A DNA stretch of 64,000 nucleotides from Streptomyces sp. NBC_01445 (GTDB taxonomy: Bacteria > Actinomycetota > Actinomycetes > Streptomycetales > Streptomycetaceae): positions 9,889,001-9,953,000 of the forward strand of contig NZ_CP109485.1 in assembly GCF_035918235.1 (NCBI RefSeq), written 5' to 3'. A program made the position numbers and the translations under genes. A model generated the notes under the pieces. The model was not told the origin of the DNA, did not search any database, and saw only the letters and a list, made by a program, of their open reading frames with translations. This document shows, piece after piece, positions 2,823 to 17,120 of this stretch; within the stretch, counting starts at the first letter, position 1; every line of letters starts with the position of its first letter.

Positions 2823-4490
2823 TCAGGGGCGGGGGAGAGCGGCCAGGTACGCGCGCCAGCTGCCGTATGAGGTGATCTCGTGGGCACCGTCGACGGCCTG
2901 TGGCTCGCAGAGGAAGCCGGTGACGAAGCTTCCGTCCGCGAGTTCCACGCTTCCGAGCGCCATCGGGCGGGGCAACGCGGCGAGGAGCGTACCCAGTCCC
3001 TCGGCGGGCAGTTGCCACACCTCGGCCTCGATCGTGCCTCCGCCTCCGCCTTCGCCGACCCGGACCAGTCCCGGCTTCGGCGGCATGGTGTTCAGTGCGT
3101 ACAGCCGGTAGGTGGGCGCGGTCGTGGTGGTGTGCACCAGTCGCCCGCCCACGGCGAGCAGTTGGCCGTTCAGGGGCTGCCCGGACAGGTGCGCGCCGAT
3201 CACCGCGAGCCGCAGGGGCGGGGAAGTGAGCAGCCCGGCGATGCGGACGAGCCGCTCGTCCGTGAAGGCCGGGCCGATCAGCATGACACCGAACGGCAGC
3301 CCGTTCACGTCGCCTGCGGGCACGGCGACCGCCGCCTGGTCGAAGAGGTTGGTGGAGTTGGTGAAGCGGCCGAGCCGGGCATTGACGCCCAGTGGGTCTG
3401 CCTCGACTTCGGCGATGGTCGGGTGGCCCGCTGCGGTCGGCAGGAGCAGTGCGTCCGCGTCGCCCAGGGAGGCCTGGGCCCGGACGCGGAGAGACGCAAG
3501 CTTTTGTTGGTCGGCGTAGAGCTGATGGGCCGGGATGTCCCCGGCCCGGGAGATGATTCCGGCCACGGTCGGGTCGAGGTCCGGCGAGTCCTTGTGCGCG
3601 TCGATGAAGGCGCCGACGGCTGTGTAGCGCTCGGCGACGAACGCACCCTCGTACAGCATCGCCGCCGCCTCCGTGAACGGTGAGAGGTCGACAGGCAGGA
3701 GCTCGGCGCCCGCGTCGGCGAGCCGCTGCGCCGCCGCTTCGAACGCCTCGGTCCAGCCGGTGTCCAGCCGGCCCAGTTGCCCGAGTTCCGGGACGGCGAT
3801 CCGCCGCGGTCCGGGGCGACGCGCGGCCGGAGCCGACAGTTCCCGCCCGGACGGCGCTGACATGAGGGACAGCGCCTGCTCGGCTTCCGGGAGCGTGCGG
3901 GCGAAGACCGTGACGCAGTCGAGCGAGGCACAGGCCGGGACGACGCCCTCGGTCGGGATCAGCCCGAAGGTCGGCTTGAGACCGACGATGCCGTTGAACG
4001 CCGCCGGGACACGGCCCGAGCCCGCGGTGTCCGTGCCGAGCGCGATGTCGGCGATGCCGAGCGCGACAGCGACCGCCGAGCCGGACGAGGAACCGCCGGA
4101 TACGTGTTCCGGGGCGAGGGCGTTGCGGACCGCGCCGTACGGGCTGCGGGTGCCGACCAGGCCGGTCGCGAACTGGTCGAGGTTCGTGGTGCCGAGGACC
4201 ACGGCGCCCGCAGCCTTCAGACGGGCCACGGCCGGCGCATCGGTGTCGGGCTCGTAGGCGTAGGCGGGACAGCCGGCGGTGGTCGGCAGTCCGGCCACGT
4301 CGATGTTGCCCTTGACCGCGAGCACCGTCCCGGCCAGCGGCAGCCGGTCACCAGCGGCGACCTTCGCGTCGACCGCGGCGGCGTCCGACTCCGTATCGGC
4401 TTGCGGACGCAGGCTGATCCACACCTCGGGCCGGTCCACCTGCGCGATGCGTGTGTAGGCGGCCCGTACCCGTTCCACTGCGGTGATCAC
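2823..4490 (-). CDS. atzF: Allophanate hydrolase
   Basis: A 555-residue amidase-signature enzyme that hydrolyses allophanate to ammonia and CO2, the last step of the carboxylase route for urea or guanidine. The catalytic triad is visible: Lys in VLAVKGNIDVAG, and the two serines in VSGGSSSGSAVA and LGTDTAGSGRVPAA. A C-terminal domain of about 120 residues (from VIGAHLSGQPLNGQL to AYLAALPRP) matches the extra domain of AtzF-type hydrolases. The GTG start at 4490 overlaps the carboxylase stop by 4 bp (GTGA), so the two are translationally coupled and expression depends on the operon promoter near 9.6 kb. It is the last gene of the operon. Confidence 0.95.
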   Translation of the reverse strand: MITAVERVRAAYTRIAQVDRPEVWISLRPQADTESDAAAVDAKVAAGDRLPLAGTVLAVKGNIDVAGLPTTAGCPAYAYEPDTDAPAVARLKAAGAVVLGTTNLDQFATGLVGTRSPYGAVRNALAPEHVSGGSSSGSAVAVALGIADIALGTDTAGSGRVPAAFNGIVGLKPTFGLIPTEGVVPACASLDCVTVFARTLPEAEQALSLMSAPSGRELSAPAARRPGPRRIAVPELGQLGRLDTGWTEAFEAAAQRLADAGAELLPVDLSPFTEAAAMLYEGAFVAERYTAVGAFIDAHKDSPDLDPTVAGIISRAGDIPAHQLYADQQKLASLRVRAQASLGDADALLLPTAAGHPTIAEVEADPLGVNARLGRFTNSTNLFDQAAVAVPAGDVNGLPFGVMLIGPAFTDERLVRIAGLLTSPPLRLAVIGAHLSGQPLNGQLLAVGGRLVHTTTTAPTYRLYALNTMPPKPGLVRVGEGGGGGTIEAEVWQLPAEGLGTLLAALPRPMALGSVELADGSFVTGFLCEPQAVDGAHEITSYGSWRAYLAALPRP

Positions 4491-7400
4491 GCGGCTGCCT
4501 CCACGGTTTCGACGGGAGCGAGGACGACGAGGGCGGTGCCCGCCTCGACCTGGCTGCCCGGCTTGGTCAGGATCTTCGTGACGATACCGGCGGCGGGGGC
4601 CGGCACCCGGGACTCCATCTTCATCGCTTCCAGCGCGAGGAGCGGCTGCCCGGCCGACACACGGTCGCCGACCTCGACGTTGACCTGCCAGACGGAGGCG
4701 GTGAACTCGGCTTCGACCAGGTGGCCGCCCTCGGGGACCCTGACGTCGGTGGCCTGTGGGGCGGCCTCGGTGGCCGCCTGCTCGCGGGTGAACTCGCCGG
4801 CCGCTTCCCAGGCGTCGCGCTCCGCGCGGAACGCCGCGCTCTGCCCGGCCCGGAACTCGGCGATCGACTCCGCGTTCTCGGCGAGGAACCGCTGGTACTC
4901 GGCGAGTGAGAAGGAACCCTCCTCGATTCTCGGTACGAACCGGCCGGACGTGATGTCCGCGCGCAGTTCCAGGAGTTCCTCCGCCTCGACCGGGTACCAC
5001 CTGATCCGGTCGAAGAAGCGCAGCAGCCAGGGCCTGCCCGGCTCGAAGGCGCCGCGCTGCTGCCAGCCCGACCACACCTGTGTGGTGCGGCCGACGAACT
5101 GGTAGCCGCCCGGGCCCTCCATGCCGTAGACGCACAGGTACGCGCCGCCGATGCCGACCGAGTTCTCCGCGGTCCAGGTGCGGGCCGGGTTGTACTTGGT
5201 GGTGACCAGCCGGTGCCGCGGGTCCAGGGGGGTGGCGACGGGTGCGCCCAGGTACACGTCTCCCAGCCCCATCACCAGGTACTCGGCATCGAAGACGGTG
5301 CGGTACACGTCCTCCACGGTCTCCAGGCCGTTGACGCGGCGGATGAACTCGATGTTCCAGGGACACCACGGGGCGTCGTCGCGCACGCCCGCCATGTAGC
5401 GGGCGATGGCCTCGCGGGTCGCCGGGTCGTCCCAGGACAGCGGCAGGTGGACGATTCGGCTGGGAACCACCAGCTCGTCGGGGGCGGGGAGTTCCTCCTC
5501 GACGCGCCGCGCGATCTCGAGGAGCTTCTCCTGAGGCAGGACGTCGGGATCTGTCCGGACCTGGAGGGAGCGGATGCCCGGAGTCAGGTCCTCGACGCCG
5601 TCGAGCCGCTGCCCGGCCAGCGCCTGCGCGAGTGCGTGGATCCGCATGCGCAGGGCCAGGTCGAGCTGCATCGGTCCGTACTCGATGAGGAGGTTGTCGT
5701 CGCCGCTGCGCCGGTAGGTGACCGACGGGCGCGTCTCGGTCCGTGGCAGGCGGGCGAGGATGCCGCCGTCGACGACGGCATCCCGATCGGCGCGTGGGGC
5801 CGCTGCCGGGTTCAGCCGCAGCCCGGCGGCGGCCTCGGTGGTCACCGGGACGAAGCGGACTGTATCGCCGGGACGGAGCTGGCCGAGCTTCCAGCGCTGT
5901 CCGGTCACGATCGTCGCCGGGCAGACGAAACCGCCCAGGGAGGGCCCGTCGGGGCCGAGCAGGACGGGCATGTCGCCGGTGTAGTCGACGGCGCCGACGG
6001 AGTACGGGGTGTCGTGGATGTTGGACGGGTGCAGGCCCGCCTCGCCGCCGTCCGTGCGCGCCCACCGCGGCCTGGGGCCGACGAGGCGCACACCGGTGCG
6101 CGCCGAGTTGAAGTGCACCTTCCAGTCCGCGGCGTAGAAGTCGCGGATGTCGTCGTCGGTGAAGAACTCGGGGGCGGCGTGCGGGCCTTCGACCGCGCCG
6201 ATGTACCACTCGCCGCCGAAGGCCGGGCGCCGGTCGAGGGGCACGACGGAGGTCTCCGAGCGCTGCTCGCCGCCGTGCAGGACGTCGCCCGCGCGCAGGG
6301 CGCGGCCGCCGTGTCCGCCGAACCGGCCGAGGGTGAAGGTGGCCGCGCTGCCCAGGAACTCCGGTATGTCCAGGCCGCCGGCGAACAACACGTAGGTGCG
6401 CAGGCCGTGCTCGTCGGGTGACCCGACGGCCAGGGTCTGCCCGGCTTCGACGGTGACCGGTTCCCACTGCGGTACGGCGATGCCGTCGACGGTCACCGGT
6501 GCGGGGGCGCCGGTGACGCACACCGTCGTCGGGTGGGTGAAGCGGAGGGACGGGCCCTGGAGGGTGCACTCGAGGCCGGGTGCGCCCTCGGTGTTGCCGA
6601 GCGCGGTGTTGCCGAGCCGGAAGGAGAGGTCGTCCATCGGTCCGCACGGGGGGACGCCGACCTGCCAGTGGCCGGTGCGCCCGGGCCAGTCCTGCACGGT
6701 GGTCAAAGTGCCGGGAGTGACGATCTCGATGCGCGGCGTCGGGTCGCTGATGGTGGCGAGCGAAGCGGTGGAGTGGGCCGCTCGGCGCACGTCGGCGTCC
6801 TGGAGCGCGGCGCGCACCAGGCCGAGGTTGGTCTCGATGCCGTCGAGGCGGGTCGCGGCGAGGGCCGTGTCCAGCCTGTCGAGTGCCTCGGCGCGGTCGC
6901 TGCCGTGCGCGACGACCTTGGCGAGCATCGGGTCGTAGGAGGTGGTGACCTCGGTGCCGGTCTCCACCCAGGTGTCGACGCGGACGCCCTCGGGGAAGGC
7001 GACGCGGGTCAGCAGGCCCGCGCTCGGCCGGTGGTCGCGGGAGGGGTCCTCGGCGTAGATGCGTGCCTCGACGGCGTGGCCCTGCGGTGTCAAAGGCACG
7101 CTGGCGACCGTGGTGTCGCCCTGCGCGAGGCGCAGCATCCACTCCACGAGGTCGACGCCGTAGATCTCCTCGGTGACCGGGTGTTCTACCTGGAGGCGGG
7201 TGTTGACCTCGAGGAAGTACGCCTCCTCGCGGGCGGCGTCGTACACGAACTCGACCGTGCCGGCGGAGCGGTAGTTCACGGACGCACACAAGTCCCGTGC
7301 TGCGGTTGCCAGTTGTTTGCGTACCGCGTCCGGGAGATCCGGGGCGGGGGCCTCCTCCAGGACCTTCTGGTTGCGGCGCTGCAGCGAGCAGTCGCGGTCG

Positions 7401-8074
7401 CCGAGGGTGACGACGCGGCCCTCGCCGTCGCCGAAGACCTGCACCTCGACGTGGCGGGCGCGCTCGACGAGCCGTTCCAGGAAGACGCCGGCGGAGGAGA
7501 AGGAGGCGGCGGCCACGCGCTGCACCCGCTCCCAGGCGTCTTCGAGGGCGCCCGCGTCGTGGCACGCCTGCATGCCGATACCGCCGCCCCCGCCGGTCGC
7601 CTTGAGCATGACCGGGTAGCCGATTCCCTCGGCTGCCGCGAGGGCGGCGTCCGTGTCAGGCAGCAGCCCGGTGCCCGGGGCGAGCGGCACACCCGCCGCA
7701 TGAGCGGCGGCGCGCGCGGTGTGCTTGGCGCCGAACAGCTCCAGCTGGTCGGGGGTGGGGCCGACGAAGACCAGACCCGCTTCGGCGCAGCTGCGGGCGA
7801 ACCCGGCGTCCTCGGACAGGAATCCGTAGCCGGGGTGGACGGCGCCGGCTCCGGTGTCCTTGGCGGCCTTCAGGATCAAGGCGGCGTCGAGGTAGGAGTC
7901 CTTGGCCGGGGCCGGGCCGAGCCGTACGGCCTCGTCGGCCAGCCGAACGTGCTCGGCGCCGCGGTCCGGGTCGGAGTAGACCGCGACGGTGCGCAGGCCG
8001 ATCCGGCGAGCCGTGCGGATGATGCGCGACGCGATCTCGCCACGGTTGGCGACCAGCAGGGTGTCGAACGTCAT
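4487..8074 (-). CDS. uca: Urea (or guanidine) carboxylase, biotin-dependent
   Basis: A 1195-residue multidomain carboxylase. It starts MTFDTLLVANRGEIASRI, a biotin-carboxylase N-domain, then an ATP-grasp region (LKATGGGGGIGMQ) to about residue 450. A KipA/AHS2-type carboxyltransferase part follows (VTPGTLTTVQDWPGRTG, about 470-770), then an AHS1-type part (about 790-1020), and a biotinyl domain with LALEAMKMESRVP (target Lys) near the C-terminus. It carboxylates urea to allophanate with ATP and bicarbonate. Some family members instead prefer guanidine when paired with DUF1989 proteins, as here. The ATG at 8074 lies 5 bp after the UAAP2 stop codon. Length and domain order are complete, with no sign of damage. 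Confidence 0.95.
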   Translation of the reverse strand: MTFDTLLVANRGEIASRIIRTARRIGLRTVAVYSDPDRGAEHVRLADEAVRLGPAPAKDSYLDAALILKAAKDTGAGAVHPGYGFLSEDAGFARSCAEAGLVFVGPTPDQLELFGAKHTARAAAHAAGVPLAPGTGLLPDTDAALAAAEGIGYPVMLKATGGGGGIGMQACHDAGALEDAWERVQRVAAASFSSAGVFLERLVERARHVEVQVFGDGEGRVVTLGDRDCSLQRRNQKVLEEAPAPDLPDAVRKQLATAARDLCASVNYRSAGTVEFVYDAAREEAYFLEVNTRLQVEHPVTEEIYGVDLVEWMLRLAQGDTTVASVPLTPQGHAVEARIYAEDPSRDHRPSAGLLTRVAFPEGVRVDTWVETGTEVTTSYDPMLAKVVAHGSDRAEALDRLDTALAATRLDGIETNLGLVRAALQDADVRRAAHSTASLATISDPTPRIEIVTPGTLTTVQDWPGRTGHWQVGVPPCGPMDDLSFRLGNTALGNTEGAPGLECTLQGPSLRFTHPTTVCVTGAPAPVTVDGIAVPQWEPVTVEAGQTLAVGSPDEHGLRTYVLFAGGLDIPEFLGSAATFTLGRFGGHGGRALRAGDVLHGGEQRSETSVVPLDRRPAFGGEWYIGAVEGPHAAPEFFTDDDIRDFYAADWKVHFNSARTGVRLVGPRPRWARTDGGEAGLHPSNIHDTPYSVGAVDYTGDMPVLLGPDGPSLGGFVCPATIVTGQRWKLGQLRPGDTVRFVPVTTEAAAGLRLNPAAAPRADRDAVVDGGILARLPRTETRPSVTYRRSGDDNLLIEYGPMQLDLALRMRIHALAQALAGQRLDGVEDLTPGIRSLQVRTDPDVLPQEKLLEIARRVEEELPAPDELVVPSRIVHLPLSWDDPATREAIARYMAGVRDDAPWCPWNIEFIRRVNGLETVEDVYRTVFDAEYLVMGLGDVYLGAPVATPLDPRHRLVTTKYNPARTWTAENSVGIGGAYLCVYGMEGPGGYQFVGRTTQVWSGWQQRGAFEPGRPWLLRFFDRIRWYPVEAEELLELRADITSGRFVPRIEEGSFSLAEYQRFLAENAESIAEFRAGQSAAFRAERDAWEAAGEFTREQAATEAAPQATDVRVPEGGHLVEAEFTASVWQVNVEVGDRVSAGQPLLALEAMKMESRVPAPAAGIVTKILTKPGSQVEAGTALVVLAPVETVEAAA

Positions 8075-8079
8075 GGGTT

Positions 8080-8718
8080 TCAGCTCTCGTCCGGCTCGGT
8101 GATCGTCGTCTGCAGGGCACTCGGGTCGAATCCGTTGCAGGGGTTGTTGATCTGCGGGCAGTTGGACAGCAGCGCGATGACGTCGGTCTCGGCGCGTAGT
8201 ACGACTTTCAGGCCCGGGGCCGAGATGCCGTCGACGATGCCGAGGGTGCCGTCCGTCTCGACCGGCACGTTCATGTACCAGTTGATGTTGGAGACCAGGT
8301 CGCGCTTGTCCAGTCCGTGCTTGCTGCCCTCGGCGAGGAAGTTCTCCACGCAGGCGTGCTGAGACCAGGTGTGGTGTCCGTAGCGGAGAGTGTTGGACTC
8401 CTTGGAGCAGGCGCCGCCCACGGTGTCGTGCCGACCGCAGGTGTCCTCGACGACGGTCATCAGCGGGGTGTGCTCGTTGGACAGCAGCACCGAGCCGGTG
8501 GTCAGGAAGATGTTGCCCTGGGCCTGGATGGTGTCGGGGGCGCTGTAGCGCACGGAGGTGTCGTGGGCGTCGTAGACGAGGAAGTCCGCGGCCTGGTTCC
8601 CGTACAGGTCGGTGATGGTGAGCAGCTGGCCCGTGCGTACGACGGCGGACCAGGCGGAGCGGGCGGGGACGGTCCGGTCGCAGACGACGCGGCCCGCAGG
8701 GGCGGTGGTGACGGTCAT
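8080..8718 (-). CDS. Urea amidolyase-associated protein 2 (DUF1989; CgdB-like)
   Basis: A 212-residue DUF1989 protein, starting MTVTTAPAGRVVCDRT. It keeps EDTCGRHDTVGGACSKESNT and the Cys-containing QHACVENFL block, both of which could hold a metal. Together with its partner (next gene upstream) it is a constant neighbour of biotin-dependent urea carboxylases. In characterised bacteria the pair forms carboxyguanidine deiminase, converting carboxyguanidine to allophanate. The ATG overlaps the UAAP1 stop (ATGA), and the carboxylase follows after 5 bp. Assigning guanidine rather than urea as substrate is inference from this partnership. Confidence 0.9.
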   Translation of the reverse strand: MTVTTAPAGRVVCDRTVPARSAWSAVVRTGQLLTITDLYGNQAADFLVYDAHDTSVRYSAPDTIQAQGNIFLTTGSVLLSNEHTPLMTVVEDTCGRHDTVGGACSKESNTLRYGHHTWSQHACVENFLAEGSKHGLDKRDLVSNINWYMNVPVETDGTLGIVDGISAPGLKVVLRAETDVIALLSNCPQINNPCNGFDPSALQTTITEPDES

Positions 8719-9557
8719 GCGATCCCCCTGGCGTTGAGGTGCGCGGCGGTGTTGAGGAAGGCGCGGCGGCCCTCGGGCGTGGCGTCCCACAGTGCGTCGC
8801 CGGGGGCGGTCGGTGCGGCCCGGTACGCGAGGACTTCAAGGGGGCCGCAGATGTACGCGGGCCGCGGGTCCAGTGGGTGGGGGACGTTGGCGATGAGCAC
8901 GGTCAGCGGTTGCTCGGCGCGCAGCGTGACGGACGTGCCGGCTCCCGCGGAGCCGGTGAAGCAGGCGGTGCCGTCCTCGCTGATCCGTACGCCCTGGAAG
9001 AAGGAGACGGACGGCGGGATGTCCCGCGGGCCGAGGCCGTTCTTGAGGGCGGCGAGTTTGAACAGCTCGCGTCCGGACGGGGTGGCCGATTGGGGAGTTC
9101 CGTCCCCGTACCGTTCGGTGTTGCGGACGAGGGTGGAGGTGCCGCTGAGGGCGTCGTGCCGGCCGGAGGTGTCCTCGGTGACGGAGGCGAGAACCCGGCC
9201 CTGGTCGGACAGGAGCAGATGTCCTTCGCCGAGGTAGGCGTTCCAGAACACCTTGACCGTGTCGGCCGCGTTCAGCCGCTCCCAAGGGCGGTCGGCGCTG
9301 TACAGCAGGACGTGTGCACACGCGTCGCCGGTGAGGTCGGTCAGGCGCAACTCGGTTCCACGGGCCAGGACCTTATGGGTGTAGTTGCCGCCTGCCACGG
9401 TCTCGGCCCACACGAGATCCTCGGCTGCGATGCCCTCGGGGGGCGTCGGCCAACTGCTCGCCGGGAGCACGGGCATGGTGTCGCACTGTGTGCCGTCCTG
9501 GGCGCGGGCGTGATCGCGGGCACCATAGGCCGACGCTGTCTCTGAAGCTGTCGCCAC
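8715..9557 (-). CDS. Urea amidolyase-associated protein 1 (DUF1989; CgdA-like)
   Basis: First gene of the operon, 280 residues. It shares the EDTSGRHDALSG block with its partner but lacks the Cys of EDTCGRHD and the ACSKES/QHACVE cysteines. This suggests one subunit of a heteromer has lost the metal site, or never had it. A GTG start at 9557 is supported by GGAGG eight bases upstream. An internal ATG (MPVLPASSW, 9476) is less likely because it lacks a ribosome site. The TetR-type operator 9581-9602 lies only about 24 bp upstream, so transcription should be repressed by the divergent TetR. Confidence 0.9.
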   Translation of the reverse strand: MATASETASAYGARDHARAQDGTQCDTMPVLPASSWPTPPEGIAAEDLVWAETVAGGNYTHKVLARGTELRLTDLTGDACAHVLLYSADRPWERLNAADTVKVFWNAYLGEGHLLLSDQGRVLASVTEDTSGRHDALSGTSTLVRNTERYGDGTPQSATPSGRELFKLAALKNGLGPRDIPPSVSFFQGVRISEDGTACFTGSAGAGTSVTLRAEQPLTVLIANVPHPLDPRPAYICGPLEVLAYRAAPTAPGDALWDATPEGRRAFLNTAAHLNARGIA

Positions 9558-9580
9558 GGTTGAACCTCCGGCTCGACGCT

Positions 9581-9602
9581 ATTTCTGTCGTGCGACAGAA
9601 AT
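9581..9602. promoter_or_regulatory. TetR-type operator, urea/guanidine operon promoter
   Basis: Two perfect 10-bp inverted arms (ATTTCTGTCG / CGACAGAAAT) around a TG centre. Read leftward it overlaps a possible -10 TAATTT. An almost identical site stands before the permease (12039-12060). Location between UAAP1 and the divergent tetR gene makes it the likely binding site of that repressor. Confidence 0.85.
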
Positions 9603-9714
9603 TAGGCTCAGGCCAAGTCGGGGCCATTGCCCGGGCATTTCGGCGCGGTAACCGGCATCTCACTTCGGCAGCTCGGCCCGCGGGGATCTCGCGGGCCTGT
9701 GCGAGGATCACGGA

Positions 9715-10398
9715 GTGAGCCCGTCCACCGCCAGAAAAGTCGGCCGCCCGCGCGCCCAGGAGCGTCCCGCCAGCGGCCTGGAGCCGCGCGAAGAGGTTCT
9801 GGCCGCCGCGGCCGAGCTGTTCACCACGCACGGCTACACCGCGACCTCCACCCGGGCGGTCGCCGAGCGGGCCGGCCTGCGACAGGCGTCGCTCTACCAC
9901 TACTTCGACGGCAAGGAAGAGATCCTCGCGGCACTGCTCGAAGGGACCGTCCGTCCCTCGCTGGAGATCGCCCGCGACCTGGTGGCCCGTACAGGAACAG
10001 CCGCCGAGGCGAGGCTGTGGGCCCTGTGCCACTCCGACGTCACGCTGCTGTGCCGTGGCCCCCACAACCTCGGGGCCCTGTACCTTCTGCCCGAGGTGCA
10101 GACGGAACGATTTGGCGTCTTCCATCAGGTACGAACCGAACTGAAGGCGTCCTACGGGGAGTTGCTGGCGGGCACGGAGCCCGGCGCGGCGCTCGGCGCC
10201 GAGGAGCTGGCGCTCCGAACGGAACTCCTCTTCGGCCTCACCGAAAGCGTGATCCTCATCCGACGTGCCGACCCCGCCCGCGACGCGTCGGCCCTCGCAG
10301 TGGCGACGGCCGACGCGGCACTGCGGATTGCGGGCGTACCGCAGCGCTCCCTGGCACGGCTGCGCCGCGAGGGGCAACAGCTCCTCGCGGCGCAGTGA
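9715..10398 (+). CDS. TetR-family repressor of the urea/guanidine genes
   Basis: A 227-residue TetR protein. The N-terminal HTH region reads EEVLAAAAELFTTHGYTATS then TRAVAERAGLRQASLYHYFD, with a longer ligand-binding C-terminal part. It starts at GTG 9715, divergent from UAAP1 and convergent with the permease gene. The shared palindrome at 9581 and 12039 brackets exactly the two units it would control. The ligand is unknown. By context it should be the pathway substrate or an intermediate (guanidine, carboxyguanidine, urea or allophanate). Confidence 0.92.
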   Translation: MSPSTARKVGRPRAQERPASGLEPREEVLAAAAELFTTHGYTATSTRAVAERAGLRQASLYHYFDGKEEILAALLEGTVRPSLEIARDLVARTGTAAEARLWALCHSDVTLLCRGPHNLGALYLLPEVQTERFGVFHQVRTELKASYGELLAGTEPGAALGAEELALRTELLFGLTESVILIRRADPARDASALAVATADAALRIAGVPQRSLARLRREGQQLLAAQ

Positions 10399-10425
10399 TG
10401 ACGACGCGGCCGGGCGTGTGACCGC

Positions 10426-12003
10426 TCAGATACGTACGGCCTCGGCCGGCTCCTTGCGTCCAGGGCCCTTGGCCGCTGGGGCAGCTCCTGCGCGGCTCCG
10501 GTACACCGCACCGGCGGCCACCGTGGCGCCGACGAACAGGACGGTGAACCACTGGAAGTACCAGTGGCCCCCTGCCGGGTCGTACACCTGCGCGCGAGGC
10601 CAGGACAGATTGACCGTCATGAACAGCCCGTAGACGACCGCGAGCGCGTTGACGGGCAGACCCCAGCGGCCGAGGGAGAACAGTGGCCTGCCCAGCTCGT
10701 CACGGTCTCCGGAATCCGTCGTGGGCCACTGGCCCTTGAGCCGGCGGAGCAGCATCGGCGCAGTCACCCCGAGGTACGCGAGATACAGCATCGCGATGCA
10801 CGTGGTGCCGATGGCCACGAACGCCTCCGGGGAGGCAAGGTTGAGCAGCGCGAGCGCCGCGGCCAGCCCGCCCACCACCAGCGCCGGGACGAAGGGCATG
10901 CCCGTGCGCGGCGACACCTTCGCCAGCCGTGCGGAGAAGGGAAGCATCCCGTCGCGCGCCATCGAGAACAGCATCCGGCTTCCGGCGGTCTGGATGGCGA
11001 GCGTGGCCACGGAGACGGCCACCGCCACGTCCGCGAGAAGGACCTTGCCCACTCCGTCGCCCAGACTGCTGGTGAGTACGTAGCTCAACCCCTCGGTGGC
11101 GAGGCGGCCGTCGGAGAGGCTGGGTGCTGCGAGGAGACCGCCGAGCAGCAGCAGGCCGCCCAGGGCACCCGCCGTGGCGAGGGCGCTGAGGATGGTGCGG
11201 GGAGCGGTGCGACGTGGGTTACGGGTCTCCTCGCTCATCTCGCCCGCACTGTCGAAGCCGATGAGGACGTATGCCGCGGTGAACGAGCCCACCAGCAGCG
11301 CCGCCACCGTGCCGTCCTGGCCGCCTGTCTTCAGAGCCACTCCGGCACCGCGCTCGACGTGGGTGAACAGCAGTACGACGATGAGGATCGCGCCGATGAT
11401 CTCGGCGGTGACGCCGATCCGGTTGATGGTCGACATGACGCGGTTGTCGAGCACGTTGACGGCGGTGGTCAGCGCCAGCAGGACGAGAGCCAGAAGGGCG
11501 GCGTTGGCCGCCCCGGTCGCCGTGGTGGGCGCCGGGTCGCCGCCGACGAGCTGGAATCCGGACCAGATCGGGGGCAGAACGACCTGCAGTGCGAGTGCGG
11601 CGGCGGCGACCACGACCACCTGACCGATCACCATGATCCAGCCTGTGAACCAGCCGAAGGCCGGGCGGCTCAGCCGGGTCGACCACTGGAAGATCGCCCC
11701 GGAGATGGGGTAACGAGCGGCGAGTTCGGCGAAGCACGCGGCGACCAGCAGTTGGCCGATGAGCACGGCGGGCCAGGTCCACAAGAACAGCGGCCCGCCG
11801 AAGGAGTAGCCCAGGGAGAAGAACTGGAAGACCGTGGTCAGGACAGAGATGAAGGAGAACCCGGCGGCGAAGGATGCGTACCGCCCCATCTGCCGCCGCA
11901 GTTCCTGGCGGTAGCCGAAGGTGGCCAGCGTGCCGTCGTCCGTGACGCCGGCCGACGGAGGGGGAGGGGGAGGTGGTGTGGTGGAGTCGGTGGTCACGGT
12001 CAT
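10426..12003 (-). CDS. APC-family amino acid/amine permease
   Basis: A 525-residue integral membrane protein with about 12 hydrophobic segments, beginning after a Pro-rich tail (TTPPPPPPPSAGVTDDG). The core starts FGYRQELRRQMGRYASFAAG, and SAGEMSEETRNPRR is the conserved loop of APC transporters of the GABA/choline permease type. Such permeases commonly accompany urea carboxylase operons. The ATG at 12003 follows a CAGGGGA site. The operator at 12039-12060 lies just upstream, so it is probably co-regulated with the operon by the TetR. The transported compound (guanidine-like cation or urea-related amine) is inferred, not shown. Confidence 0.9.
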   Translation of the reverse strand: MTVTTDSTTPPPPPPPSAGVTDDGTLATFGYRQELRRQMGRYASFAAGFSFISVLTTVFQFFSLGYSFGGPLFLWTWPAVLIGQLLVAACFAELAARYPISGAIFQWSTRLSRPAFGWFTGWIMVIGQVVVVAAAALALQVVLPPIWSGFQLVGGDPAPTTATGAANAALLALVLLALTTAVNVLDNRVMSTINRIGVTAEIIGAILIVVLLFTHVERGAGVALKTGGQDGTVAALLVGSFTAAYVLIGFDSAGEMSEETRNPRRTAPRTILSALATAGALGGLLLLGGLLAAPSLSDGRLATEGLSYVLTSSLGDGVGKVLLADVAVAVSVATLAIQTAGSRMLFSMARDGMLPFSARLAKVSPRTGMPFVPALVVGGLAAALALLNLASPEAFVAIGTTCIAMLYLAYLGVTAPMLLRRLKGQWPTTDSGDRDELGRPLFSLGRWGLPVNALAVVYGLFMTVNLSWPRAQVYDPAGGHWYFQWFTVLFVGATVAAGAVYRSRAGAAPAAKGPGRKEPAEAVRI

Positions 12004-12038
12004 GGCGGTCCCCTGTCCCGGAGGCGTGATCCTGCGGA

Positions 12039-12060
12039 GTTCCTGTCGTGCGACAGAAAT
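12039..12060. promoter_or_regulatory. TetR-type operator, permease promoter
   Basis: GTTCCTGTCG-TG-CGACAGAAAT is the same element as 9581-9602 with two changed bases in the left arm. On the leftward strand CCTAATTTCTGTCG is shared exactly between both promoters, so a TAATTT -10 candidate is conserved too. Confidence 0.82.
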
Positions 12061-12200
12061 TAGGGACCACCCGTTTCTGCCGGGTGTCACCGCCATGTCC
12101 GCTCCGTTAGTGACTCCTCTCCGTGGCGGGATGCCGCTCAGAGGCGGGAAGTCGCGCTCTGCCAGGTGCTGTAGGCCGGCATGACGATGGGGGATGTTCC

Positions 12201-13918: not shown

Positions 13919-14740
13919 TCAGCGCCAGTCGACCCCGCCCGCGCCCGTGCCCTGAGCCAGTCTTGCCTCGATCTCCTCGCGCACCTTCTGCATCACGGTC
14001 ACAATCCGCCGCTCGCGCTGCTCGGTGAGCCGTGCCACCGGCACCGAGCAGCTGATCGCGTCCTGCGCCGGCGCTTCGCCGTTCACGCGCAGCGCGAAGC
14101 CGAATCCGACGATGCCGGTGACGCCCTCCTCGCGGTCGATCGAGTAGCCGCGGGCACGGACCTGTGCGAGGTCGGCGACGAGCGCGGCCAGGGTGGTGTG
14201 GGTGCGTGGCGTCAGCGCCTCGTACGGTGCGTCGGGCAGTGCCGCGTCCGAGTGTTCGGCCAGCAGCGCCTTGCCGAGTGCGCCCGCGTGGGCGGGCAGC
14301 CAGCGCCCCACTCGGCTGATGGTGCGCAGATACTCGTGCGACTCACGGGTCGCGAGGTAGGCGATGTCCATGCCGTCGAGGCGGGCCAGATGGATGGTCT
14401 CGCCGAGTTGCTCCGAGGCATCGTCCAGGTAGGGGCGCACCACGCGGACCACGGGGTCGGTGTCCAGATAGGTGGTGCCGGTGAGCAGTGTGCGCAGGCC
14501 GATTCCGTAGAGCGAGCCGGTGGCGTCGGTGCGCACCCAGCCGCGTGCGATCAGGGTCTGCAGCAGCGCGTACATGGAGCTGCGCGGGACGCCCAACTCG
14601 GCGGCGAGTTCCTGCAGCCGGGCGGGCCGGTCGCCGCGGTCGGCGAGGAGTTCGAGCAGTTCGACCGTGCGAGCGGCCGACTTCACCTCGCGCACGCCGG
14701 ACTCGGACGGCCGGACCACGGGCTCAACAGATTCGGACAT
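13919..14740 (-). CDS. IclR-family regulator of the glucarate operon
   Basis: A 273-residue protein. The N-terminal winged helix reads RLQELAAELGVPRSSMYALL and QTLIARGWVRTDATG. The C-terminal effector domain contains the DISCSVPV-like block (QDAISCSVPVARL) of IclR proteins. The ATG at 14740 is chosen because the upstream in-frame extension runs into the divergent promoter region. It is divergent from kdgD, with 143 bp between starts that must hold both promoters, so it most likely controls D-glucarate degradation. Its effector is probably glucarate or a pathway intermediate (inference). Confidence 0.9.
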   Translation of the reverse strand: MSESVEPVVRPSESGVREVKSAARTVELLELLADRGDRPARLQELAAELGVPRSSMYALLQTLIARGWVRTDATGSLYGIGLRTLLTGTTYLDTDPVVRVVRPYLDDASEQLGETIHLARLDGMDIAYLATRESHEYLRTISRVGRWLPAHAGALGKALLAEHSDAALPDAPYEALTPRTHTTLAALVADLAQVRARGYSIDREEGVTGIVGFGFALRVNGEAPAQDAISCSVPVARLTEQRERRIVTVMQKVREEIEARLAQGTGAGGVDWR

Positions 14741-14883
14741 GGGTCGATCGTACGTACCGTCCCGACCTGCGTGTTCCCGCCTGCACTTGATGCCGAATCC
14801 CTTGCTCGAACCCATTGACGGGGTGGTTTCCCGAGCCTACTGTCCATCCCCATGTGCGAACGTCATCTACATACGGAGACAGC

Positions 14884-15831
14884 ATGGTGACTCGGACCCC
14901 CCTCGCCGGCACTGCGGCGCGGCTGCGCGACGGCATGGCCCAGGGCGTGCTGTCGTTCCCGCTCACCAGCTTCCAGGCCGACGGATCGCTCGACCTCGAC
15001 GGCTTTCGCAGCTATCTCGCCGGGCAACTGGAGACGAACCCCGGCGCGCTCTTTCCGGCCTGCGGCACGGGGGAGTTCGGCGCGCTCGACGAGGACGAGT
15101 ACGGCCAGGTCGTCGCGACCGCCGTGGAGGTGACGGCGGGCCGCGTCCCGGTCGTGGCCGGTACCGGCTACGGCTACGCCCAGGCACTGCGCTTCGCCCG
15201 TATCGCCGAGGACGCCGGAGCCGACGCACTCCTCGTCCTGCCGCACTACCTCAACAAGGCCCCGCAGGACGGGCTGGTCGAGCAACTCCGCCGGATCGCC
15301 GACCGCACCCGGCTGCCACTCATCGCCTACCAGCGCGACCATGTGACGTACGACGCGGAGACCGTGCGCCGGATCGCCTCGATCCCCGGCGTCATCGGCC
15401 TCAAGGACGGCCACAGCGACCTCGACCGGCTCCAGCGCAGCACCCTCGCCGCCCCCGACGGCTTCCTCTTCTTCAACGGCGCCCCGACAGCCGAGCTCCA
15501 GGCCCGCGCCTATGCGACGGTCGGCATCCCCGCCTACTCCTCGGCCGTCCACGCCTTCGCCCCGGAGATCGCCAACGCCTTCTTCCAGGCCCTGTCGGCA
15601 GGCGACGACAGCCGTGTCGACAACCTGCTCGCCGACTTCTACGTGCCCTTCGTGGAGCTGCGCGACCGGCGGCCCGGGTATGCGGTGTCCCTGGTCAAGG
15701 CGGCGGCCCGGCTGCGCGGCCGCCCGGTCGGACCGGTCCGCGCGCCCCTCACCGACCCGACCCCCTCAGACCTCGCCGACCTCGAAACACTGCTCACCAC
15801 CGGCCTGAACCTCGTTGGAGCCGCCCGATGA
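14884..15831 (+). CDS. kdgD: 5-dehydro-4-deoxyglucarate dehydratase
   Basis: A 315-residue DHDPS/NAL-family aldolase-fold enzyme. It dehydrates and decarboxylates 5-keto-4-deoxyglucarate to 2-oxoglutarate semialdehyde. The Schiff-base Lys is in GVIGLKDGHSDLDRL, and the Gly-rich ACGTGEFGALDEDEY block near residue 60 is the family's carboxylate-binding loop. YQRDHVTYD carries the catalytic Tyr position. ATG 14884 follows GGAGAC. The stop overlaps gudD (ATGA). The dehydrogenase for the next step is not in the window. Confidence 0.94.
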   Translation: MVTRTPLAGTAARLRDGMAQGVLSFPLTSFQADGSLDLDGFRSYLAGQLETNPGALFPACGTGEFGALDEDEYGQVVATAVEVTAGRVPVVAGTGYGYAQALRFARIAEDAGADALLVLPHYLNKAPQDGLVEQLRRIADRTRLPLIAYQRDHVTYDAETVRRIASIPGVIGLKDGHSDLDRLQRSTLAAPDGFLFFNGAPTAELQARAYATVGIPAYSSAVHAFAPEIANAFFQALSAGDDSRVDNLLADFYVPFVELRDRRPGYAVSLVKAAARLRGRPVGPVRAPLTDPTPSDLADLETLLTTGLNLVGAAR

Positions 15832-17120
15832 ACGACCTGACGATCACCGACGTCCGGCTGACCCCGATCCTCGTCGCCGACCCGCCGCTGCTCAACGCCC
15901 AGGGGGTGCACCAGCCGTACACCCCCCGCCTGATCATCGAGGTCACCACCGCGGACGGGATCACCGGCCTCGGCGAGACCTACGGCGACACCAAGTACCT
16001 GGAACTGGCCCGCCCGTACGCCGAGAAGCTGGTCGGCCGGTCCGTCGCAGACCTCAACGGCCTGTTCACCCTCGCGGACGAGGTCGCGGTGGCCGAGGAG
16101 CGGGTGACGAACCAGGTGGACGTGGGAGGCCTGCGAGGCGTCCAGACCGCCGACAAGCTGCGGCTGTCCGTCGTCTGCGGCTTCGAGGTTGCCTGCCTGG
16201 ACGCACTCGGCAAGGCGCAGGGCCTGCCGGTTCACGCCCTGCTCGGCGGCAAGGTGCGCGACGCCGTCGAGTACAGCGGCTACCTCTTCTACAAGTGGGG
16301 CGAGCACCCGAAGGGCGTCGACTCCGAGGTGGACGACTGGGGCGAGGCCGTCGACCCGGCCGGCATCGTCGACCAGGCACGCAAGTTCACCGAGCGCTAC
16401 GGCTTCCGCTCCTTCAAGCTCAAGGGCGGCGTATTCGCGCCCGACCAGGAGATCGCGGCGATACGCGCCCTCGCCGAGGCGTTCCCCGGAAGCCCGCTGC
16501 GACTCGATCCCAACGGCGCCTGGTCCGTCGAGACCTCCATCAAGGTCATCGAGGCGCTGCAGGACGTCCTGGAGTACATGGAGGACCCCACTCTCGGTAC
16601 GCCCAACATGGCCGCCGTCGCCGCCCGTACCGACGTGCCGCTCGCCACCAACATGTGTGTGACGACCTTCGACGAGGTCAAGGAGGCGTTCACGTGCGAC
16701 GCCGTCCAGGTCGTCCTGTCCGACCACCACTACTGGGGCGGCCTGCGCAACACCCGCGAACTCGCCGCCATATGCCGCACCTTCGGCGTCGGAGTGTCGA
16801 TGCACTCCAACACCCACCTGGGCATCTCGCTCGCCGCGATGACACACGTGGCGTCCACCGTCCCGAACCTGCACCACGCCTGCGACTCGCACTACCCCTG
16901 GCAGTCCGAGGACGTGCTGAACGAACGGATCACTTTCACGGACGGCAAGGTGACCGTCTCCGACGCCCCGGGCCTCGGCGTCACCCTCGACCGCGACAGG
17001 CTCGCCGTCCTGCACCAGCGCTGGCTTGACGACGACGGCACGATGCGCGAACGCGACGACGCGGCAGCGATGCGCGTCGCCGCCCCGGCCTGGGAAACCC
17101 CGGCCTTCCCCCGCTGGTGA
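15828..17120 (+). CDS. gudD: Glucarate dehydratase
   Basis: A 430-residue enolase-superfamily enzyme that dehydrates D-glucarate to 5-keto-4-deoxyglucarate. Visible active-site pieces are the KxK of FRSFKLKGGVF, metal ligands in LRLDPNGAWS, EYMEDPTLG and ATNMCVTTFDE, the Asp of VVLSDHHYWGG and the His of SMHSNTHLGIS. The start overlaps the kdgD stop by 4 bp, so both are made together. Full length and undamaged. Confidence 0.95.
   Translation: MNDLTITDVRLTPILVADPPLLNAQGVHQPYTPRLIIEVTTADGITGLGETYGDTKYLELARPYAEKLVGRSVADLNGLFTLADEVAVAEERVTNQVDVGGLRGVQTADKLRLSVVCGFEVACLDALGKAQGLPVHALLGGKVRDAVEYSGYLFYKWGEHPKGVDSEVDDWGEAVDPAGIVDQARKFTERYGFRSFKLKGGVFAPDQEIAAIRALAEAFPGSPLRLDPNGAWSVETSIKVIEALQDVLEYMEDPTLGTPNMAAVAARTDVPLATNMCVTTFDEVKEAFTCDAVQVVLSDHHYWGGLRNTRELAAICRTFGVGVSMHSNTHLGISLAAMTHVASTVPNLHHACDSHYPWQSEDVLNERITFTDGKVTVSDAPGLGVTLDRDRLAVLHQRWLDDDGTMRERDDAAAMRVAAPAWETPAFPRW

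What the first reader, a model, noticed from the sequence alone, without database searches (positions are those of the whole stretch)
2823..12060. Guanidine-type degradation regulon under a TetR with two matched operators, no ykkC riboswitch seen
UAAP1, UAAP2, biotin carboxylase, allophanate hydrolase, an APC permease and a TetR form one unit. Both promoters carry the same 22-bp palindrome. DUF1989 pairs elsewhere act as carboxyguanidine deiminase, so this may be a guanidine-assimilation system controlled by a protein rather than the riboswitch usual for guanidine genes. The inducer of this TetR is unstudied as far as I know.
Basis: partly seen in the sequence, partly recalled or inferred. Interest (0 to 1): 0.72.

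Follow-up and report, generated by a model that had tools for sequence, protein, structure and literature searches.

The report
AmtR-controlled guanidine-assimilation operon
A soil bacterium's genes for feeding on guanidine appear to be switched by a repressor protein, AmtR, that earlier work tied to urea, so AmtR is a good candidate for a protein that senses guanidine, a job so far known only for RNA switches.

Summary
One unit encodes allophanate hydrolase, biotin-dependent carboxylase, two DUF1989 proteins, a TetR and an APC permease; a 22-bp palindrome sits in both promoters and nowhere else in the 11.47-Mb genome. No guanidine riboswitch reaches its cut-off in the window.

The TetR is not unstudied: it is AmtR, whose operon and operator core have been published since 2013 as a "urea" system. 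In Streptomyces, AmtR was found in 40 of 40 genomes with UAAP2 and 5 of 40 without (35 and 5 at equal threshold). Guanidine-I riboswitches stand at 3 of 6 operons lacking AmtR and 0 of 25 with it.

Each promoter has a GlnR-like array, a -10-like box, then the AmtR operator: likely GlnR reports nitrogen hunger and AmtR reports substrate. Published effector tests used urea and amino acids, without effect. A 2025 review knows no guanidine-binding transcription factor. Whether AmtR binds guanidine, an intermediate or something else is untested; one gel-shift would decide.

The parts
2823..4490 (-). allophanate hydrolase (555 aa; amidase plus AH_C domain)
   Evidence: NF006043 740.6 bits (cut-off 487), TIGR02713 686.8 (cut-off 511.05); PF01425 and PF21986
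4487..8074 (-). predicted guanidine carboxylase (annotated family: urea carboxylase; 1195 aa; BC, CT and biotin carrier domains)
   Evidence: TIGR02712 1865.5 bits (cut-off 1303.85); Asp697 at K. lactis position 1330 and Asp939 at position 1584
8080..8718 (-). DUF1989 protein UAAP2, predicted carboxyguanidine deiminase subunit (called CgdB in my scripts; label arbitrary)
   Evidence: TIGR03424 323 bits (cut-off 284.7); PF09347
8715..9557 (-). DUF1989 protein UAAP1, predicted second deiminase subunit (called CgdA in my scripts; label arbitrary)
   Evidence: TIGR03425 310.1 bits (cut-off 205.95); GTG start with GGAGG upstream
9581..9602 (.). AmtR operator 1, 22-bp perfect palindrome, between UAAP1 and amtR
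   Evidence: shares the core of the AmtR consensus quoted in PMC8864220; core conserved in relatives
9599..9604 (-). -10-like element TAATTT running into operator 1 (UAAP1 promoter)
   Evidence: present at this place in 63 of the 68 relative loci that have a UAAP1 operator (listing; one search kept only those); assignment as -10 is inference
9615..9652 (-). GlnR-like array GTTAC-n6-GAAAT-n6-GCAAT-n6-GACTT upstream of the UAAP1 -10-like box
   Evidence: coordinates; degenerate pattern in 59 of 60 unique UAAP1 promoters against shuffle mean 0.5; GlnR boxes listed in PMC10704036
9715..10398 (+). AmtR, TetR-family repressor (227 aa), divergent from the operon
   Evidence: best solved relatives are AmtR: 5e57 E 6.7e-40, best non-AmtR 6.4e-12; fold: 14 best chains all AmtR
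10426..12003 (-). APC-superfamily permease, predicted guanidine importer
   Evidence: TIGR03428 permease of urea carboxylase system 645.7 bits, below its cut-off 740.45; PF13520
12039..12060 (.). AmtR operator 2, 20 of 22 bp identical to operator 1, upstream of the permease
12057..12062 (-). -10-like element TAATTT running into operator 2 (permease promoter)
   Evidence: inference
12073..12110 (-). GlnR-like array CTAAC-n6-GACAT-n6-GACAC-n6-GAAAC upstream of the permease -10-like box
   Evidence: coordinates; degenerate pattern in 23 of 23 unique permease promoters, shuffle mean 0.15

Best explanation
A guanidine-assimilation regulon under double transcriptional control. The permease imports guanidine (inferred); the carboxylase makes carboxyguanidine (predicted from signature residues); the two DUF1989 proteins deiminate it to allophanate (predicted from family); allophanate hydrolase finishes it, giving three ammonia per guanidine. 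AmtR dimers sit on the palindrome that begins inside the -10-like box of both promoters and block transcription (binding and repression shown by others for M. smegmatis AmtR; inferred here). GlnR activates from the array just upstream under nitrogen shortage (GlnR binding and nitrogen control shown by others in M. smegmatis; inferred here). The operon opens fully only when nitrogen is short and AmtR is released by a pathway signal. The most likely signal is guanidine itself (about 40 to 45 percent), then carboxyguanidine or allophanate (about 20 percent).
For: Carboxylase: Asp at K. lactis 1330 and 1584, the criteria used in PMC11410670 (passages). The genome also has urease (873.9 bits). AmtR identity. 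Operator found only at the two promoters. 90 of 100 loci with AmtR have an operator with at most 1 mismatch in 10 fixed positions within 300 nt upstream of UAAP1, permease or AmtR matches (up to three stretches each); random 300-mers 57 of 2000. Streptomyces: AmtR beside the operon in 40 of 40 genomes with UAAP2, AmtR in 5 of 40 without; at one equal threshold 35 of 40 and 5 of 40, Fisher p 8e-12, relatedness ignored. Guanidine-I riboswitch at 0 of 25 AmtR operons and 3 of 6 without AmtR (p 0.004). D108, Y123, F136, Y147, E177 are invariant in 102 of 102 in-locus AmtR sequences and E127 in 101; M. smegmatis AmtR keeps all six, C. glutamicum AmtR, which answers to GlnK, has Glu, Tyr, Tyr, Phe, Met and, for E127, Ile. 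Guanidine-III riboswitch before a SugE-like exporter in the same genome.
Against: No enzyme, growth or binding data on this organism. The Asp rule is not absolute: in the class sample 4 of 28 carboxylase matches have Met there, and 3 of these 4 lie under guanidine-I riboswitches. Six Streptomyces genomes carry an AmtR with the same six residues but no UAAP2 at the thresholds used and no recognisable operator in the fetched stretch, so AmtR may do something else there, or the residues may be structural. 10 of 100 AmtR loci lack a near-perfect operator. The permease is below the cut-off of its family. The strict GlnR box is absent from both window promoters (strings). The genomes are related and some contigs occur twice, so counts are not independent; one riboswitch genome is only 78 percent complete.
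Confidence: 0.7

Rival explanations
1. A urea amidolyase operon: the enzyme carboxylates urea, AmtR and GlnR regulate urea use, as published from 2013 on.
For: TIGR02712 and TIGR03424/03425 names; published wording (PMC4222082; PMC10704036, passages).
Against: Asp not Asn at position 1330 in the window and 80 of 80 fetched relatives; two DUF1989 deiminase-type genes would have no step to do on urea (inference); urease present; urea at 0.5 to 5 mM did not affect M. smegmatis AmtR binding.
Confidence: 0.1
2. AmtR here reports nitrogen status through GlnK (PII), as in C. glutamicum, and binds no small molecule.
For: Homology to C. glutamicum AmtR, for which no small effector has been identified (PMC8864220, passage).
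Against: In M. smegmatis the amtR mutant kept nitrogen control, which was lost in the glnR mutant; [quoted passage not shown] only two operator sites in the genome, not a global regulon; effector-domain residues differ from C. glutamicum; GlnR-like boxes already stand in the promoters.
Confidence: 0.15
3. The signal is a pathway intermediate (carboxyguanidine or allophanate) or another guanidino compound such as methylguanidine or guanylurea, not guanidine.
For: TetR repressors of catabolic operons often bind intermediates (general knowledge, recalled); the operon context fits equally.
Against: Guanidine riboswitches, which AmtR seems to stand in for, bind guanidine itself (PMC12186494, passages); carboxyguanidine is unstable (recalled).
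Confidence: 0.3

Closest known systems
AmtR regulon of Streptomyces avermitilis (Chen et al. 2013; paper not held; known here from PMC8864220 and PMC4222082)
   Same: Same gene set: sav6697 and sav6698 amidase and carboxylase, sav6701 AmtR transcribed in the opposite direction, sav6709 permease (table and legend in PMC4222082); the quoted consensus TAtCTGTCa-n2-cGACAGATAT shares the core CTGTC-N4-GACAG with both window sites.
   Different: There the substrate was called urea; operator flanks differ by some bases (window ...AAAT against ATAT); in the window the permease gene is next to amtR, there it lies elsewhere.
AmtR of Mycobacterium smegmatis (PDB 5e57; PMC4222082)
   Same: Fold and sequence, small regulon, combined with GlnR, same six effector-domain residues.
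   Different: amtR is not co-localised with the operon; its operator was not compared here.
Guanidine carboxylase pathway (Schneider 2020 and Sinn 2021, not held; described in passages of PMC12186494 and PMC11410670)
   Same: Carboxylase with Asp1330, two-subunit deiminase, allophanate hydrolase.
   Different: The model operons described are under guanidine-I or -II riboswitches and mostly use ABC importers; here AmtR operators and an APC permease.
AmtR of Corynebacterium glutamicum (PDB 5dxz, 5dy0, 5dy1, 5mqq)
   Same: TetR repressor of the same subfamily, 36-38 percent identity in the fold alignment.
   Different: Global nitrogen regulator released by GlnK (PMC8864220 and PMC4617892, passages); lacks the Asp/Glu set.

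Membership tests
AmtR subfamily of TetR repressors | closest sequence and fold relatives are AmtR proteins | tested here: met
AmtR subfamily of TetR repressors | operator with core CTGTC-N4-GACAG before operon and permease | tested here: met
   consensus from PMC8864220 (passage)
AmtR subfamily of TetR repressors | binds the operator and represses | not testable with these tools
   needs EMSA and a deletion strain
AmtR subfamily of TetR repressors | release by GlnK (C. glutamicum) | not testable with these tools
   residue differences only
guanidine carboxylase | Asp at K. lactis urea amidolyase position 1584 | tested here: met
   Asp939, by position in the printed alignment to 5i8i/3va7
guanidine carboxylase | Asp at position 1330 (Asn in K. 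lactis) | tested here: met
   Asp697
guanidine carboxylase | prefers guanidine over urea | not testable with these tools
   enzyme assay needed
carboxyguanidine deiminase | two DUF1989 subunits | tested here: met
   TIGR03424 and TIGR03425 each over cut-off; the tree criterion of PMC11410670 was not run
guanidine riboswitch regulon | guanidine aptamer upstream | tested here: not met
   no Rfam family at or over its gathering score in the window
urea carboxylase (urea-specific) | Asn at position 1330 | tested here: not met
   Asp697
GlnR-regulated promoter | 5-mers of type gTnAc / GaAAc spaced by 6 | tested here: inconclusive
   degenerate form GNNAY-n6-GNAAY in both window promoters, 59 of 60 and 23 of 23 unique promoters; the strict GTNAC-n6-GAAAC form in 9 of 60 and 9 of 23 and in neither window promoter

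The most novel reading that the evidence does not exclude
AmtR of GlnR-containing actinomycetes is a guanidine-binding transcription factor, the protein counterpart of the guanidine riboswitch, with an effector pocket built from D108, E127, E177 and aromatic residues Y123, F136, Y147; in C. glutamicum this pocket was lost when AmtR became a GlnK-driven global regulator.
Probability: 0.4. Interest if true: 0.8.

Novelty: new member of a known kind. Interest (0 to 1): 0.58.

Why it matters
The small-molecule effector of AmtR is, as far as the papers seen here tell, still unidentified (tests of 2013 negative; none identified for the C. [quoted passage not shown] Re-reading the AmtR regulon as guanidine assimilation names the compound that the 2013 tests left out and makes the question a single gel-shift. 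It would also show one metabolite handled by an RNA sensor (exporter) and a protein sensor (catabolism) in the same cell.

Tried and rejected
Phylum sample with TIGR02712: only 7 of 246 genomes over cut-off, too thin, replaced by a class sample with UAAP2. Sub-threshold guanidine-I-like hits in six AmtR genomes: stretches around five were fetched and lie on contigs of other lengths than the operon's; the two whose genes I looked at lie before TIGR03340-like membrane proteins; the other three fetched and the sixth (G425, another contig than its operon) were not examined. Apparent lack of AmtR in five Streptomyces genomes at E 1e-40 was a threshold effect: all five have AmtR and an operator in the operon. 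A guanidine-I match in L123 scores exactly at the limit (63 bits) and was not listed. First coordinates for the carboxylase were off by one.

Literature: AmtR with guanidine gave 2 papers, both on insects by title; so PMC4222082, which holds the word AmtR, does not hold the word guanidine. At least 4 of guanidine, TetR, riboswitch, transcription factor, urea carboxylase: 50 papers, 20 listed. A repressor/actinobacteria search: 13 papers. No listed title or abstract start joins AmtR to guanidine. Subscription papers and preprints are not held, so this is not proof of absence.

Changed on re-check: DUF1989 pairs are in 79, not 80, of 80 loci; the co-occurrence is now also given at one equal threshold; the GlnR row is set to inconclusive because the strict box is absent from the window; the quoted AmtR consensus is said to share the core only.
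Full report
What is there. Four are read leftward as one run: UAAP1 (9557-8715), UAAP2 (8718-8080), carboxylase (8074-4487), allophanate hydrolase (4490-2823). The TetR (9715-10398) is read rightward, and the permease (12003-10426) leftward from its own promoter. A 22-bp palindrome stands between UAAP1 and the TetR (9581-9602, perfect 10-bp arms) and in front of the permease (12039-12060, 20 of 22 identical). Shuffled windows gave none in 100. In the whole genome the pattern with up to 3 mismatches matched these two places only, the reversed control none. No Rfam family reaches its gathering score in the window.

Which substrate. PMC11410670 (passages) requires Asp at K. lactis position 1584 for guanidine carboxylase and Asp at 1330 to tell it from urea carboxylase. 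Each DUF1989 protein of the window passes the cut-off of its own TIGR family. The genome has a urease alpha subunit over cut-off, so urea has its own route. Guanidine is therefore the likely substrate; nothing was assayed.

Which regulator. The six best solved relatives of the TetR are AmtR chains (5e57 at E 6.7e-40; the best other TetR at 6.4e-12). The predicted model (mean pLDDT 93.2) has AmtR as its 14 best chains in the PDB, M. smegmatis AmtR first. PMC8864220 (passages) quotes an AmtR consensus TAtCTGTCa-n2-cGACAGATAT for GlnR-containing actinobacteria; the window sites share its core CTGTC-N4-GACAG, with some flank bases different. PMC4222082 (passages, section 10 whole) describes the same gene set with AmtR in ten actinobacteria, shows AmtR binding and repression in M. 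smegmatis, reports that urea and amino acids at 0.5 to 5 mM had no influence on binding, shows GlnR binding before msmeg_2184, and finds that nitrogen control depends on GlnR, not AmtR. So regulator, operator core and operon are known; what is new is reading them as a guanidine system.

Conservation. The 10 without are L051 and L054 (contig edge), L100 and L101 (AmtR elsewhere in the genome), L116, L117, L120, L122, L123 and L124. Of 120 exact cores in 2.37 Mb, 114 lie between 20 nt inside and 330 nt before the start of a UAAP1, permease or AmtR match. Of the 100 AmtR loci, 90 have an operator with at most one mismatch within 300 nt of one of these starts (up to three stretches per locus); 57 of 2000 random 300-mers of the same loci do. 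In Streptomyces, 40 of 150 sampled genomes have UAAP2. AmtR was then sought in those 40 and in the first 40 of the 110 others by handle number: 35 and 5 matched at E 1e-40 (Fisher p 8e-12). In the 35 it lies within about 2.5 kb of UAAP2 (positions). The five misses all carry a more distant AmtR at the other end of the operon, and an operator, so 40 of 40 have it; the negatives were not inspected below the threshold in the same way. In the smaller class sample, at E 1e-25, the counts are 9 of 9 and 1 of 19.

Riboswitch or AmtR. Of 296 class genomes, 31 have UAAP2 over cut-off. 25 are AmtR-type: 23 with AmtR in the locus, window included, and 2 with it elsewhere. None of the 25 has a guanidine-I match over cut-off. 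Six have no AmtR in the genome at E 1e-25: three have a guanidine-I riboswitch in front of the operon (L122, L123, L124; L123 exactly at the limit), two have no carboxylase (L116, L120), one is a 5-kb contig (L117). Over the 74 genomes (the 31 plus 43 of the 80) the counts are 3 of 6 and 0 of 68. That search used stricter filters that lose weak matches. Rfam scans at gathering score of 27 AmtR loci besides the window (26, L135) listed no guanidine riboswitch; the same scan listed those in L122 and L124. AmtR and riboswitch thus look like alternatives for the same job. The number of riboswitch operons is small.

Same cell, RNA sensor too. The genome has one guanidine-III riboswitch at 6,312,026-6,312,086, 46.4 bits, about 30 bases before a small exporter gene whose best family is SugE (118.8 bits, below the cut-off of 126). 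Of the 74 genomes, 45 have guanidine-III over cut-off.

Promoter anatomy. Promoters with the full TAATTT-CTGTC-N4-GACAG string were aligned (64 UAAP1 promoters, 60 unique; 24 permease promoters, 23 unique; window included). That string is in 63 of the 68 relative loci with a UAAP1 operator. Upstream stand 5-mers spaced by six: GTAAC-n6-GCAAC-n6-GCAA-n7-GAC for UAAP1 and GACAC-n6-GTCAC-n6-GAAAC for the permease. The pattern GNNAY-n6-GNAAY is in 59 of 60 and 23 of 23, against means of 0.5 and 0.15 in 200 single-base shuffles. PMC10704036 (passages) lists gTnAc-n6-GaAAc and t/gTAAC-n6-Gc/aAAC as GlnR boxes. The strict GTNAC-n6-GAAAC form is rarer (9 of 60, 9 of 23) and not in the window. The window has four such 5-mers, loosely read, in each promoter. 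The likely gate is GlnR for hunger and AmtR for substrate.

Which signal. Outside the DNA-binding part, D108, Y123, F136, Y147 and E177 are invariant in 102 of 102 in-locus AmtRs (unique sequences, window included, five) and E127 in 101. In the printed profile alignment M. smegmatis AmtR keeps all of these, while C. glutamicum AmtR has Glu, Tyr, Tyr, Phe, Met and Ile at D108, Y123, F136, Y147, E177 and E127. In a model of the lyase MgdL the guanidine moiety is held by Glu, Asp and a Trp (PMC12508155, passage). This suggests, and does not show, a guanidine pocket in AmtR. Against it: six AmtRs in genomes without UAAP2 at the thresholds used keep the same six residues, so these could serve something else. 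[quoted passage not shown] No listed title or abstract start (20 of 50 papers listed), 25 and 52 joins AmtR and guanidine.

Verdict. Ordinary in parts (a known regulon, a known pathway), interesting in the join: an already studied repressor is the best present candidate for a protein sensor of guanidine, and the test is cheap.

Noticed in passing
L122:6984-10482, L123:115-4109, L124:6945-13710; also L117:2473-5124: In three operons under guanidine-I riboswitches, and one contig fragment, the carboxyltransferase has Met, not Asp or Asn, at the position that is said to set substrate.
   Followed up: partly
L116:7744-17090 and L120:6928-11674: Two genomes have the DUF1989 pair and allophanate hydrolase in one run with no carboxylase match. 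In L116 there are neighbours resembling caprolactamase subunits, a phosphotriesterase-like protein and an FAD-oxidase-like protein; perhaps another substrate.
   Followed up: partly
L140-L145 (AmtR between about 4.8 and 9.4 kb): Six Streptomyces genomes without UAAP2 at the thresholds used keep an AmtR in a similar neighbourhood (a TatC-like and a large helicase-like gene by eye) with no operator in the fetched stretch; targets unknown.
   Followed up: partly
G000:C1:6312026-6312086 (L125:6027-6087): Guanidine-III riboswitch before a SugE-like exporter in the window's own genome.
   Followed up: yes
L126:7080-7215, L127:7077-7220: Sub-threshold guanidine-I-like matches (49.6 and 49.5 bits) lie before TIGR03340-like membrane protein genes in the genomes of loci L072 (Amycolatopsis) and L069 (Actinocrispum); maybe a relative of the ykkC class.
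   Followed up: no
L131 (G258:C366:7836-7942): A guanidine-I riboswitch (86.2 bits) lies near a creatininase-like and a type III glutamine-synthetase-like gene, both below family cut-offs.
   Followed up: no
L097, L100, L102, L104, L111, L112, L114, L115: In 8 of the 28 class-sample loci with a carboxylase match, the match covers only about residues 430-1105, without the biotin carboxylase half, still with the Asp; the Met-type loci L122 and L124 also lack that half.
   Followed up: no
L139:3553-5619: Allophanate hydrolase matches in two pieces, perhaps a broken gene or a sequencing fault.
   Followed up: no
window 13919-17120: IclR-like, dehydratase-like and enolase-type ORFs that look like sugar-acid catabolism; by eye only, not searched.
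   Followed up: no
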